This document shows positions 33,950 to 37,247 of a DNA stretch of 64,000 nucleotides, piece after piece. Below the pieces are notes generated by a model. It searched no databases. It was not told the origin of the DNA and was given only the letters and a program-made list of their open reading frames with translations. The position numbers and the translations under genes were made by a program. Each line of letters begins with the position of its first letter. Position 1 is the stretch's first letter. Origin of the DNA: Gammaproteobacteria bacterium (GTDB lineage Bacteria > Pseudomonadota > Gammaproteobacteria > Burkholderiales > Gallionellaceae); contig JAHJQE010000096.1 in assembly GCA_018819205.1 (NCBI GenBank), positions 29,665 through 93,664 on the forward strand, read 5' to 3'.

Positions 33950-33999
33950 GTATCGCAGGTCGTCCTGCGTATTGGTCAGGCATCCGGTCGTCCGGATGC
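33950..33999 (-). promoter_or_regulatory. Candidate guanidine-II (mini-ykkC) riboswitch before the carboxylase gene
   Basis: On the minus strand the gap after the deiminase gene folds into two perfect hairpins with identical ACGA tetraloops. P1 has an 8-bp stem (GCATCCGG / CCGGATGC, 33980-33999) and P2 a 6-bp stem (CGCAGG / CCTGCG, 33954-33969), joined by a 10-base linker. Two hairpins with ACGR loops define guanidine-II riboswitches. Just after P2 the sequence ACCTGCGATACAGGT shows that the 3' arm of P2 can instead pair with AGGT of the ribosome-binding site, so ligand-stabilised P2 would switch translation on. The aptamer call rests on pattern, not on a covariance search. Confidence 0.85.
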
Positions 34000-34008
34000 G
34001 CGGATTCA

Positions 34009-34656
34009 TCAAGCAGCGGCGTCCCAGATCAGCAACTGCACCGGCGTCGGGTTGTAGGCGTTGCAGGGGTTGTTCAGTTGCGGGCAGTTGGAGATCAGCA
34101 CGAACACATCCATCTCGGCGCGCATCTCGACATACTTGCCGGCTGCGGAGATGCCGTCGGCGAAGGTCAGCTCGCCCTGCGGTGTCACCGGCACGTTCAT
34201 GAAGAAGTTCACATTGGCAGTAAGGTCGCGCTTGTCCATGCCGCAATCGCAATGGCCCAAGGCGTGCAGGAAGCTGTCGCGGCAGCTGTGCATGTATTTC
34301 TTGTCGGTGGCGTAACGCACCGAGTTGCTCTCGGCGGCGCAGGCACCGCCCAAGGTGTCGTGACGGCCGCAGGTATCAGCGACGATGGTCATCAGCACAT
34401 TGCCTTCGGTGGACATCAGCTTGGTGCCGGCAGTGAGGTAGAGGTTGCCCTGTTCGCGGATGGTATCCACCGCGCTGTAGCGCTCCTGCGGATCGCGTGC
34501 GCTGTAGAACAGGGTGTCCACAGCCTGATTGCCTTCCAGGTCGAGGATGCGGAACACCTGTCCGCGCTTCACTTCATGCAGCCAGGATTCACCGGCGGGC
34601 AGCACCAGGTCATAGCTGGCCTGTTGCGGGTTCAGTTTGCTTTCAACGATGCTCAT
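34009..34656 (-). CDS. Urea carboxylase-associated protein (carboxyguanidine deiminase subunit, DUF1989)
   Basis: A 215-residue protein of the DUF1989 'urea carboxylase-associated' family. The fold is marked by GESWLHEVKRGQVFRILDLEG, DTLFYSA and the cysteine-rich metal region DTLGGACAAES with GHCDCGMDKRDL. Published work on guanidine users showed that the two paralogous UAAP proteins form a carboxyguanidine deiminase (CgdAB) that turns carboxyguanidine into allophanate and ammonia, the step between the carboxylase and allophanate hydrolase. Which subunit this one is was not assigned. The start at 34656 has AGGAGAG 4 bases upstream; it follows its paralogue by 14 bases. Confidence 0.88.
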   Translation of the reverse strand: MSIVESKLNPQQASYDLVLPAGESWLHEVKRGQVFRILDLEGNQAVDTLFYSARDPQERYSAVDTIREQGNLYLTAGTKLMSTEGNVLMTIVADTCGRHDTLGGACAAESNSVRYATDKKYMHSCRDSFLHALGHCDCGMDKRDLTANVNFFMNVPVTPQGELTFADGISAAGKYVEMRAEMDVFVLISNCPQLNNPCNAYNPTPVQLLIWDAAA

Positions 34657-34670
34657 GTTCTCTCCTGCGC

Positions 34671-35399
34671 TCAACGGAACAACAGTTCGGTGTTGTGGAA
34701 GCCGCGCACGTTCTCGGGACGGAAGTTGCGGCACAGGTCTTGTTCGTCCGGCGTGCCGCAGCGCCATGCCTGCAGCAACACCGGCTTGGGGGCGTAGTCG
34801 GGATTCGGGTCAAGCGGATGCTGGGTGGCGCTCAACACCACCAGCACGTCCATCTCGAAACGCAGTTCGACGAATGCACCTGCTTTTGAATGGTTCGCCG
34901 CGAAGTGCAGTCCGCCACTCTCGTCGCTACTCACCTTGCTGAAGAAGTTCACGTTGGGCACGATGTCGCGCTTGCCCAATCCCCACTTGCCCAGCTCGAT
35001 CAGCATGCTGTCGCGTGCGTTGCGGTGCATGGCGTTGCGCGCCTGCTGGTAATCGGCCTTGCCGTATCTCTTCTCCACCAGCGCGGCGTTGCTCATGCCG
35101 CTGATGGTGTCGTGCCAGCCCACGCTGTCGCCGATGACCGAGGCCAGCACGCGCCCCATGTCGGAATACAGCACGAAGCCGGTGGTGAGATGCGCGGTGT
35201 GCTGCGCCTTCAGCGTGTCCGGCATGTTGTAGCGCTCCAGCTTCTCTTCCTGGTTGTAGAACAGCGCGCTCAGGTTGGCGCCGCCTTCCACATCGGTGAG
35301 GCGCAAGGCGGTGCCGCGCTTCATCACGAAGGAGCTATGCGCACCGCCGGGAAGCGTCTCTTCCCACAGCAGATTGGTTTTGGATAAGTGTTCAGTCAT
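34671..35399 (-). CDS. Urea carboxylase-associated protein (carboxyguanidine deiminase partner subunit, DUF1989)
   Basis: A 242-residue paralogue of the neighbouring DUF1989 protein, with the matching blocks GGAHSSFVMKRGTALRLTDVEGG, SALFYN and SVGWHDTISGMS, and GLGKRDIVPNVNFFSKV. It lacks the paralogue's GHCDCG cysteines at the corresponding place, so the two subunits have diverged and probably only one carries the full metal site. They are expected to act as a heteromeric deiminase. The start at 35399 was chosen over 35414 for its AGGA at 8-base spacing; the longer start would overlap the ATPase stop. Confidence 0.87.
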   Translation of the reverse strand: MTEHLSKTNLLWEETLPGGAHSSFVMKRGTALRLTDVEGGANLSALFYNQEEKLERYNMPDTLKAQHTAHLTTGFVLYSDMGRVLASVIGDSVGWHDTISGMSNAALVEKRYGKADYQQARNAMHRNARDSMLIELGKWGLGKRDIVPNVNFFSKVSSDESGGLHFAANHSKAGAFVELRFEMDVLVVLSATQHPLDPNPDYAPKPVLLQAWRCGTPDEQDLCRNFRPENVRGFHNTELLFR

Positions 35400-35410
35400 C
35401 TCGTCGTTCC

Positions 35411-36262: not shown

Positions 36263-36270
36263 CGTTCGCC

Positions 36271-37089
36271 TTATTTCTTGTACATCCAGGGGAAGTTCCT
36301 GCGATGCAGCCAGCGGAACAACTGGTCTATGGTCAGACCGATGAGGCCGATCAAAATGATGCCGGCGAAGATCTTGTCGGTCTGCATGAAGCGCTGTGCG
36401 CGCAGGATGGAATAGCCGAGGCCGGAGTTGGCGGCGACCAGCTCAGCCACCACCAGATAGGTCCACGCCCAGCCCATGGTCACGCGCAAGGTGTCGAGCA
36501 AGGCGGGCTTGGCCGACGGCACGATCACCAGCGACACGATCTCGCCACGGCTCGCGCCCATGGTCTGCGCCGCCTCGATCTGGGTGATGGGCACGCGGCG
36601 CACGTCTTCGGCCACCATCAGCACCATCTGGAAGAAAGTGCCGATGAAGATGATGGCGATCTTGGAGCTCTCGTCGATACCGACCCACAACATCACCAGC
36701 GGGATGAAGGCGACGGCGGGCATGTAGCGGATGAAGTCGGTGAGCGGCTCCAGCATGGCCTGCACCGGACGGTAGGTGCCGATCATCAGGCCGATAGGAA
36801 TGGCCAGCACAGCGGACAAGGCAAAGCCGGCCATGACGCGATAGGTGCTGATCCAGATGTCGTGCGACAGCTCGTCATCCATGAACCAGGTGTAGGCACG
36901 GGACACCACTTCCATCGGCCCCGGCATGAACACCTTGTCCATCCAGCCGCTGACCGAAAGCCCCCACCATGCGGCCAGCGGAACCAGCATGCCGAACAGC
37001 GCGAACAGCAGATAGGTGCGGCGGCTCAACTCTCCGCGTATCACCCAGAGACTGTCCCACCTAGCGAGAATCTTGTTACGTGACGACAT
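36271..37089 (-). CDS. ABC transporter permease, NitT/TauT type
   Basis: A 272-residue inner-membrane subunit with about six transmembrane segments and the EAA loop (MGASRGEIVSLVIVPSAKPALLDTLR) that contacts the ATPase. It resembles TauC/SsuC-like permeases. It is the first gene of the guanidine operon, with CAGGAG 6 bases before the ATG. Its ribosome-binding site lies right behind the terminator-like hairpin of the guanidine-I riboswitch, so its expression should be the first to respond to ligand. Confidence 0.93.
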   Translation of the reverse strand: MSSRNKILARWDSLWVIRGELSRRTYLLFALFGMLVPLAAWWGLSVSGWMDKVFMPGPMEVVSRAYTWFMDDELSHDIWISTYRVMAGFALSAVLAIPIGLMIGTYRPVQAMLEPLTDFIRYMPAVAFIPLVMLWVGIDESSKIAIIFIGTFFQMVLMVAEDVRRVPITQIEAAQTMGASRGEIVSLVIVPSAKPALLDTLRVTMGWAWTYLVVAELVAANSGLGYSILRAQRFMQTDKIFAGIILIGLIGLTIDQLFRWLHRRNFPWMYKK

Positions 37090-37105
37090 GACACACTCCT
37101 GAAAA

Positions 37106-37159
37106 TATCAAAGCCCGGGAGGGTGCCAACCGTAACGTGGTCACAACCTCCCGGGCTTT
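37106..37159 (-). terminator. Expression platform of the guanidine-I riboswitch
   Basis: On the minus strand the last bases of the aptamer (AAAGCCCGGGAGG, 37159-37147) pair perfectly over 13 bp with CCTCCCGGGCTTT at 37122-37110, followed by GATATTTT. The hairpin and the ligand-bound aptamer compete for the same strand. Without guanidine the hairpin should form and stop transcription. The T-run is imperfect, so part of the effect may be blockage of the adjacent ribosome-binding site. Confidence 0.8.
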
Positions 37160-37247
37160 TATCCCTCCGTGGAGCCTTGTCTCCGACAAGACCGAGCACT
37201 CTCGGACCAGACATCGCCAACTGACAAGCCAACGATCGGAACCCTAG
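37147..37247 (-). promoter_or_regulatory. Guanidine-I (ykkC) riboswitch aptamer
   Basis: On the minus strand the conserved blocks of the ykkC class 1 aptamer occur in order and spacing: CTAGGGTTCCG at 37247-37237, TCTGGTCCGAGAG near 37212-37200, and ACGG with GGGATAAAAGCCCGGGAG at the 3' end. These are the nucleotides that build the guanidinium pocket. The element lies about 60 bases upstream of the ABC permease ATG and heads the operon for guanidine uptake and breakdown. It is normally an 'on' switch. Confidence 0.96.

What the first reader, a model, noticed from the sequence alone, without database searches (positions are those of the whole stretch)
33950..37247. Two different guanidine riboswitch classes in series inside one operon
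The leader of the minus-strand operon carries a guanidine-I aptamer with all signature blocks, and the 71-base gap before the carboxylase gene holds two perfect hairpins with ACGA loops, the defining form of guanidine-II. The first should control transcription into transporter and deiminase genes; the second should control translation of the large biotin carboxylase by freeing its ribosome-binding site. Most known guanidine operons use one class. Two sensors with different affinities would create a staged response: uptake and deiminase first, then the costly ATP-dependent carboxylase.
Basis: partly seen in the sequence, partly recalled or inferred. Interest (0 to 1): 0.93.

Follow-up and report, generated by a model that had tools for sequence, protein, structure and literature searches.

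The report
Two guanidine switches in one operon
A bacterial operon predicted to turn guanidine into usable nitrogen carries two different guanidine-type RNA switches in series, one likely controlling transcription and the other likely controlling translation of the carboxylase, a layout that has already been described in other bacteria.

Summary
Rfam finds a guanidine-I aptamer at 37146-37258 (84.7 bits, cut-off 63) and a guanidine-II aptamer at 33955-33999 (41.2 bits, cut-off 32), both minus strand. Guanidine-I leads ABC permease, ATPase, CgdA and CgdB. Guanidine-II lies in the 71-nt gap before the carboxylase, which has the Asp of guanidine carboxylases; allophanate hydrolase follows. A 2025 review describes the same layout in Raoultella, Erwinia and Klebsiella (PMC12186494); a 2025 paper measured both switches in Vreelandella, apparent KD 44 and 93 uM (PMC12508155). 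My census agrees: 16 of 150 family, 18 of 399 order and 11 of 369 class genomes carry the two in series. Among 19 named operons picked by carboxylase, 6 do by Rfam, 9 counting weaker hairpin pairs. New detail: in 10 junctions without guanidine-II, eight cgdB-carboxylase gaps are 36 nt or less, suggesting coupled translation. A better lead lies downstream: binding-protein, desaturase-like, EamA, biuret-hydrolase-like and MBL genes; in at least 13 other genomes the first two stand directly behind their own guanidine-I riboswitch. Verdict: new member of a known kind.

The parts
37146..37258 (-). guanidine-I riboswitch aptamer in the operon leader
   Evidence: Rfam RF00442, 84.7 bits, gathering 63, E 1.1e-13, model 1-107/107
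37110..37159 (-). terminator-like hairpin that reuses the aptamer 3' strand (AAAGCCCGGGAGG...CCUCCCGGGCUUU), followed by GAUAUUUUC
   Evidence: fold of 37099-37157 gives -30.9 kcal/mol, z -4.96; a hairpin with 11-13 pairs to the same 3' strand is predicted at 19 of 19 family guanidine-I loci folded (L102-L116, L130-L133)
36271..37089 (-). ABC transporter permease
   Evidence: PF00528; NCBIfam TauC/nitrate permease-like, below cut-offs
35411..36262 (-). ABC transporter ATPase
   Evidence: NCBIfam nitrate/taurine ATPase-like, below cut-offs
34671..35414 (-). CgdA-type subunit of carboxyguanidine deiminase (UAAP1)
   Evidence: TIGR03425 360.5 bits, cut-off 206; PF09347
34009..34656 (-). CgdB-type subunit (UAAP2)
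   Evidence: TIGR03424 344.2 bits, cut-off 285; PF09347
33955..33999 (-). guanidine-II riboswitch aptamer: P1 33980-33999, P2 33955-33968
   Evidence: Rfam RF01068, 41.2 bits, gathering 32, E 8.8e-05; fold -21 kcal/mol, z -5.66
33946..33960 (-). candidate SD-masking pairing: ACCUG (33956-33960, P2 3' strand) with CAGGU (33946-33950, SD of the carboxylase)
   Evidence: 5 bp; over 28 distinct loci, window included, own pairing beats swapped partners except in 177 of 20000 permutations, relatedness not corrected
30317..33937 (-). predicted guanidine carboxylase, 1206 aa, NCBIfam name urea carboxylase
   Evidence: TIGR02712 1942 bits, cut-off 1304; D703 in FTGDMPV and D955 in GLGDVYLGAP
28546..30309 (-). 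allophanate hydrolase AtzF (ORF opens at 30327; likely ATG at 30309)
   Evidence: NF006043 874.5 bits and TIGR02713 811 bits, over cut-offs
27686..28543 (-). xylose-isomerase-like TIM-barrel protein, likely ATG 2 nt after the atzF stop
   Evidence: PF01261 31.2 bits, just over the cut-off of 31.1; start seen; matched after atzF in relatives
26506..27486 (-). NMT1/SsuA-type substrate-binding protein, likely partner of the importer
   Evidence: PF09084; TIGR03427 'putative urea ABC' 97 bits, below cut-off

Best explanation
This minus-strand operon holds a guanidine-I aptamer in its leader (37146-37258) and a guanidine-II aptamer in the 71-nt gap before its predicted guanidine carboxylase gene (33955-33999), and the two are predicted to work in series as guanidine ON switches, the first likely by antitermination of the whole operon and the second likely by freeing the carboxylase ribosome-binding site. 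Shown: both covariance hits, the gene order, the hairpin that can reuse the last strand of the guanidine-I aptamer, the 5-bp complementarity between the P2 3' strand and the SD, and recurrence of the layout in many genomes. Inferred: ligand binding, termination, SD masking. The expected logic is an AND gate: without guanidine the transcript would end before the permease and any read-through message would keep the carboxylase start masked; with guanidine, importer and deiminase would be made from the transcript alone, while carboxylase, and by close spacing (7 nt, then 2 nt) allophanate hydrolase and the TIM-barrel protein, would also need guanidine-II to bind. It is a further example of the layout described in Raoultella, Erwinia, Klebsiella and Vreelandella.
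For: Rfam hits over gathering cut-offs for both classes. Gene families over curated cut-offs for CgdA, CgdB, carboxylase and AtzF; the FTGD aspartate in the window and in 33 of 33 relatives' carboxylases. Terminator-like hairpin -30.9 kcal/mol, z -4.96. Series arrangement in 16 of 150 family genomes, 18 of 399 order genomes and 11 of 369 class genomes. The family and order pairs make 28 distinct genomes: the window and 27 fetched loci; in all 28 guanidine-II lies between cgdB and the carboxylase. The further class pairs were not fetched. P2-strand/SD pairing better than swapped partners (177 of 20000); 4 or more contiguous pairs in 18 of 27 distinct relatives (counted) and in the window. Published probing of the same layout, Gd-I KD 44 uM and Gd-II 93 uM (PMC12508155, section 6). 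No convincing internal promoter: one promoter-like site in 33900-37500, shuffles give 1.4.
Against: Nothing here measures ligand binding. In a simple energy model P1+P2 (-22.5 kcal/mol) already beats P1 plus the P2-strand/SD pairing (-20.4) without ligand, so that masked state is not favoured thermodynamically; in the same model the SD core GGU is 97-99% paired, but with other partners, in the centroid with ACC of the P1-P2 linker, a pairing that shows no own-partner preference across loci (18658 of 20000 swaps do as well). Nine of 27 distinct relatives have at most 3 contiguous P2-strand/SD pairs, and L103, L121 and L125 only 2. Against shuffled spacers only 7 of 28 loci fall under 0.05 and 2 exceed 0.9. 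The permutation test ignores relatedness. The U-tract behind the guanidine-I hairpin is interrupted (UUUGAUAUUUUC); several order-level relatives have few U there (L119, L120, L125, L128), L118 and L128 have 5 pairs and L122 no clear hairpin; the pattern scan did not call this terminator (its loop limit is 8). No promoter-like site was called upstream of guanidine-I up to 37500.
Confidence: 0.82

Rival explanations
1. Only guanidine-I regulates in this organism; the guanidine-II hairpins are a relic or a stabilising spacer, and the carboxylase is made whenever the message exists.
For: P2 is predicted to form without ligand; L132 and L133 lack guanidine-II and their cgdB and carboxylase frames overlap (gap -1), so the operon can do without it.
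Against: Paired hairpins with ACGN loops are kept in 42 of 53 junctions by the hairpin rule, with differing stem sequences; a plain spacer would not need them. Guanidine-II at the same position binds guanidine in Vreelandella.
Confidence: 0.08
2. Guanidine-II acts mainly on message survival or Rho-dependent termination inside the operon rather than on ribosome access as such.
For: The P2-strand/SD masked state is not favoured energetically; PMC12508155 notes that translation and mRNA level can be tightly linked.
Against: The SD begins 4 nt behind P2 in the window and is complementary to its 3' strand; no intrinsic-terminator-like site on the minus strand was called in 33900-37500, though Rho sites were not tested.
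Confidence: 0.1
3. The two switches give a graded, staged response with clearly separate guanidine thresholds.
For: Gd-I is more sensitive than Gd-II in Vreelandella, 44 against 93 uM.
Against: The gap is only twofold and was measured in another species; guanidine-I gates the carboxylase too, so the thresholds are not independent.
Confidence: 0.25

Closest known systems
[quoted passage not shown]
   Same: Guanidine-I goes with importer and carboxyguanidine deaminase genes; guanidine carboxylase and allophanate hydrolase lie immediately downstream under guanidine-II.
   Different: Here the substrate-binding protein is encoded downstream, after atzF and a TIM-barrel gene. The gene-level order in those three was not compared.
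Vreelandella boliviensis guanidine carboxylase operon (PMC12508155, section 6 read, other passages seen)
   Same: Gd-I in the 5'-UTR, Gd-II between cgdB and gca; authors propose transcription plus translation control; both probed.
   Different: There mgdH and mgdL (methylguanidine demethylation) lie between gca and atzF; here carboxylase and atzF are 7 nt apart and other genes lie downstream. No binding data here.
PRPP-guanine tandem riboswitch (PMC7266159, passages seen)
   Same: Two RNA sensors governing one transcript.
   Different: There two ligands share one terminator; here the two elements are 3.1 kb apart with separate likely expression platforms and one presumed ligand.

Membership tests
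Guanidine-I riboswitch (RF00442) | Covariance score over the curated gathering cut-off, full model | tested here: met
   84.7 bits, cut-off 63, model 1-107
Guanidine-I riboswitch (RF00442) | Binds guanidinium | not testable with these tools
   needs in-line probing
Guanidine-I riboswitch (RF00442) | Transcriptional ON platform: terminator overlapping the aptamer 3' strand | tested here: inconclusive
   hairpin 37110-37159 reuses the aptamer strand, -30.9 kcal/mol; U-tract interrupted, termination not measured
Guanidine-II riboswitch (RF01068) | Covariance score over cut-off; two hairpins with ACGR loops | tested here: met
   41.2 bits, cut-off 32; both loops ACGA
Guanidine-II riboswitch (RF01068) | Cooperative binding of two guanidiniums by loop-loop contact | not testable with these tools
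   needs probing
Guanidine-II riboswitch (RF01068) | SD unmasking | tested here: inconclusive
   5-bp complementarity; 177 of 20000 swaps over 28 loci do as well; energy favours P2 without ligand
Guanidine carboxylase pathway operon | CgdA, CgdB, carboxylase, AtzF together | tested here: met
   all four over curated cut-offs, adjacent, same strand
Guanidine carboxylase pathway operon | Asp rather than Asn at the substrate-specifying site of the carboxylase | tested here: met
   D703 in FTGDMPV, D955 in GLGDVYLGAP; rule as stated in PMC11410670 for TIGR02712 positions 701 and 956. The match of D703 to position 701 is inferred from the profile span 2-1203 to 1-1201, not read from the profile alignment
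Dual Gd-I/Gd-II layout as in Raoultella and Vreelandella | Gd-I at the head, Gd-II between cgdB and carboxylase, same strand | tested here: met

The most novel reading that the evidence does not exclude
The guanidine locus continues past atzF into a guanidine-linked module that my library searches did not find described: substrate-binding protein, a three-histidine-box desaturase-like membrane protein, an EamA transporter, a biuret-hydrolase-like enzyme and an MBL hydrolase. In at least 13 other genomes of the order a guanidine-I riboswitch stands directly before the substrate-binding and desaturase-like genes. It would be a feeder pathway that oxidises or hydrolyses a larger guanidino or ureido compound into guanidine or allophanate, with the dual-riboswitch operon finishing the job.
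Probability: 0.35. Interest if true: 0.62.

Novelty: new member of a known kind. Interest (0 to 1): 0.25.

Why it matters
As a riboswitch finding it is confirmation: another lineage carries an RNA gate on transcription and a second RNA gate on translation of the costly ATP-dependent carboxylase. The comparison is useful because the second gate is dispensable in nature: most junctions without guanidine-II have cgdB and carboxylase close together or overlapping. Relatives with and without it would let the value of the second gate be measured. If the downstream module is a feeder pathway, it would point to an unrecognised natural source of guanidine.

Tried and rejected
Rejected: chance hairpins. 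Rejected: an alternative OFF structure from the lowest-energy fold of the longer leader, in which the P2 5' strand pairs with GUCUUG in carboxylase codons; the needed GTCY occurs in 16 of 30 relatives only. Rejected: the P1-P2 linker as the shared SD-masking strand of the carboxylase loci; own linker pairing is no better than swapped (18658 of 20000, 30 distinct loci), although in the exporter-type loci L134-L136 it is strong (-4.4 to -8.8 kcal/mol). Rejected: a degenerate third guanidine riboswitch in the 199-nt gap before the substrate-binding gene; no Rfam match to E 5 in 27300-27900. False starts: one search read only one record per file and was repeated; one search misplaced the cgdB stop in L102, L114, L122 and L126 and is replaced; one search printed a 4-nt atzF/TIM-barrel overlap from an assumed start, whereas the ATG lies 2 nt after the stop. 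The hairpin rule misses L162, which Rfam calls, and counts pairs in L131, L142, L143, L158 and L161 that Rfam did not call at gathering threshold. (a two-sequence alignment) led nowhere. Dual-layout literature searches. Not held and not read: Nelson 2017, Sherlock 2017 and the isolation paper behind the Raoultella statement (seen only as citations, or recalled).
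Full report
THE OBSERVATION. A scan of the window with all Rfam models gives guanidine-I at 37258-37146 (84.7 bits, cut-off 63) and guanidine-II at 33999-33955 (41.2 bits, cut-off 32), both minus strand. They lie 3146 nt apart. Guanidine-II fills most of the 71-nt gap between cgdB (34009-34656) and the carboxylase gene (30317-33937). Its two hairpins are perfect and both loops read ACGA.

THE OPERON. In order of transcription: guanidine-I; ABC permease; ABC ATPase; CgdA (TIGR03425, over cut-off); CgdB (TIGR03424, over cut-off); guanidine-II; carboxylase (TIGR02712, 1942 bits); allophanate hydrolase (over cut-off); a TIM-barrel protein. 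With the likely starts, the other gaps up to the TIM-barrel gene run from -4 to 14 nt, so the guanidine-II gap is the only long one. The carboxylase has D703 in FTGDMPV, the aspartate by which guanidine carboxylases are told from urea carboxylases (rule as stated in PMC11410670, passages; the match of D703 to profile position 701 is inferred). The 33 relatives' carboxylases examined all have FTGD.

EXPRESSION PLATFORMS. Behind guanidine-I, AAAGCCCGGGAGG, the last strand of the aptamer, can instead pair with CCUCCCGGGCUUU to give a hairpin of -30.9 kcal/mol (z -4.96) followed by an interrupted U-tract and then the SD of the permease. A hairpin of this kind with 11 to 13 pairs is predicted at 19 of 19 family loci folded (L102-L116, L130-L133), with 6 to 8 U in the next 12 nt in 18 of them (3 in L105). 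The 12 order-level loci (L117-L128) are poorer: 1 to 8 U, five pairs in L118 and L128, no clear hairpin in L122. Behind guanidine-II, the 3' strand of P2 (ACCUG) is complementary to the SD (CAGGU). Over 28 distinct loci, window included, the own pairing averages -4.64 kcal/mol against -4.01 for swapped partners; 177 of 20000 permutations do as well (without the window gave 242 of 20000 over 27). Against shuffled spacers, 7 of 28 loci fall under 0.05 and 2 exceed 0.9. This is modest evidence and relatedness is not corrected. By a simple energy count P1+P2 is 2.1 kcal/mol better than P1 plus the masked SD without ligand, and the SD core, though 97-99% paired in the ensemble, finds other partners; both speak against this pairing as a purely thermodynamic OFF state. 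A proposed SD/anti-SD switch for guanidine-II is in print (PMC7544219, passages).

HOW WIDESPREAD. Family sample: 20 of 150 genomes have guanidine-I, 25 have guanidine-II, 17 have both and 16 have them in series on one strand; the seventeenth, G057, has them on two contigs whose genes match the two halves of the operon. Order sample: 51, 64, 24 and 18 of 399. Class sample: 29, 27, 15 and 11 of 369. The samples overlap, so they must not be added; the family and order pairs together make 28 distinct genomes. Co-occurrence is far above independence in each (hypergeometric 1e-13, 1e-8, 5e-12), ignoring relatedness. The 28 are the window and 27 loci that I fetched; in all 28 the second element lies between cgdB and the carboxylase. 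The class-only pairs were not fetched, so their genes are unchecked.

A SET PICKED BY CARBOXYLASE. 21 were carboxylases of this kind (L142-L162), of which 19 show the cgdB-carboxylase junction. Guanidine-I by Rfam: 16 of 19. Guanidine-II at the junction: 7 of 19 by Rfam (L147, L148, L149, L150, L156, L160, L162), 11 of 19 with weaker hairpin pairs added (L142, L143, L158, L161). Both in series: 6 of 19 by Rfam (Chromatiales, two Pseudomonas, Enterobacteriaceae, Caballeronia, Oxalobacteraceae), 9 of 19 with the weaker pairs; in Hyphomicrobium (L146) guanidine-II lies before cgdA instead. Three Acinetobacter and three Bacillales loci have guanidine-I and no guanidine-II call.

WHERE THE SECOND SWITCH IS MISSING. 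Of 53 junctions, 43 have guanidine-II or a like hairpin pair; their gaps are 64 nt or more. The 10 without have gaps of -1, -1, 1, 3, 5, 5, 20, 36, 118 and 151 nt (L162, gap 118, counted with the 43 on its Rfam hit). One of the ten, L146, has its guanidine-II before cgdA. The short gaps suggest (untested) that translation is then coupled. L132 and L133 (gap -1) lie in the window's family, and their genus mate G053 (L109) still has guanidine-II.

WHAT IS IN PRINT. [quoted passage not shown] PMC12508155 (section 6 read; further passages) reports for Vreelandella boliviensis Gd-I in the 5'-UTR and Gd-II between cgdB and gca, apparent KD 44 and 93 uM for guanidine, with Gd-II also binding methylguanidine (83 uM), and calls the double control a possible subject for further studies.

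THE MECHANISM. The most likely reading is an AND gate. Guanidine-I would decide whether the message exists; guanidine-II would decide whether the carboxylase on it is translated, and with it the close-spaced atzF and TIM-barrel genes. Importer and deiminase need only the first. That order is sensible, as the deiminase removes what the carboxylase makes. A separate staged threshold is possible but the only measured pair I saw differs twofold.

OUTSIDE THE COORDINATES. After the TIM-barrel gene come substrate-binding protein, PF00487 desaturase-like protein (three histidine boxes), EamA transporter, isochorismatase-fold hydrolase and MBL-fold hydrolase (the last is nearest to N-acyl homoserine lactonases). 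The isochorismatase-fold hydrolase is nearest to biuret hydrolase (PDB 6xjm, E 5.8e-65; NF050097 262 bits, below its cut-off of 370); that fold family also holds guanylurea hydrolase, which makes guanidine (PMC9800807, passages). The desaturase-like protein has no sequence match in the PDB to E 1. Of 20 regions fetched, most around guanidine-I hits and chosen partly because a desaturase-like hit was already visible, 13, in 13 genomes, have guanidine-I followed directly by substrate-binding protein and desaturase-like gene, and 8 of these also show EamA and the hydrolase. The other 7 do not show that order: five carry importer or carboxylase-operon genes or both near guanidine-I (L230, L233, L235, L236, L237), L224 has substrate-binding protein, EamA, hydrolase and MBL without the desaturase-like gene, and L240 shows only a substrate-binding match. 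In L162 a second Rfam guanidine-II (14699-14745) lies directly before a desaturase-like gene. In ten family relatives fetched downstream, EamA is found in 10, MBL in 8, the desaturase-like gene in 6 and the hydrolase in 4. In the window itself no riboswitch precedes this set: the 199-nt gap has no Rfam match, so its link to guanidine here rests on position and relatives. Library searches for guanidine + riboswitch + isochorismatase and for guanidine riboswitch + biuret found no paper; guanidine riboswitch + desaturase found five, of which the two I looked into mean an arginine desaturase and three were not opened for that word. This module is the better lead for novelty.

VERDICT. Both elements are real and the mechanism proposed is plausible, but the arrangement is known and common. 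New member of a known kind; interest 0.25.

Noticed in passing
window 23131-27486 (-), and L222-L241: Substrate-binding protein, desaturase-like (PF00487), EamA, biuret-hydrolase-like and MBL genes follow the operon. In at least 13 other genomes of the order the substrate-binding and desaturase-like genes stand directly behind their own guanidine-I riboswitch.
   Followed up: partly
L162 14699-15780: In an Oxalobacteraceae genome a second guanidine-II riboswitch (39.5 bits) lies directly before a desaturase-like gene 41% identical to the window's.
   Followed up: partly
L108, L111, L115, L117, L131: These five relatives' operons start with guanidine-I and cgdA, with no permease or ATPase match in the stretch, and carry an EamA transporter downstream (after the TIM-barrel gene in all but L115, which shows no TIM match), so EamA could be an alternative importer (inferred).
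   Followed up: no
window 27686-28543 (-): Xylose-isomerase-like TIM-barrel gene 2 nt after atzF, matched in most family operons; no NCBIfam name, role in guanidine use unknown.
   Followed up: no
L134-L139: In six family genomes guanidine-II instead leads a gene whose first codons read MNW(I/F)IL or MAWVIL, consistent with a small Gdx-type exporter (name recalled). There the P1-P2 linker, not P2, has the complement of the SD, strongly in L134-L136.
   Followed up: no
window 50041-50115 (+): SAM-alpha riboswitch (39.5 bits, cut-off 36) before an ORF at 50070-51287 that looks like homoserine O-acetyltransferase, followed by a methyltransferase-like ORF (names from recall).
   Followed up: no
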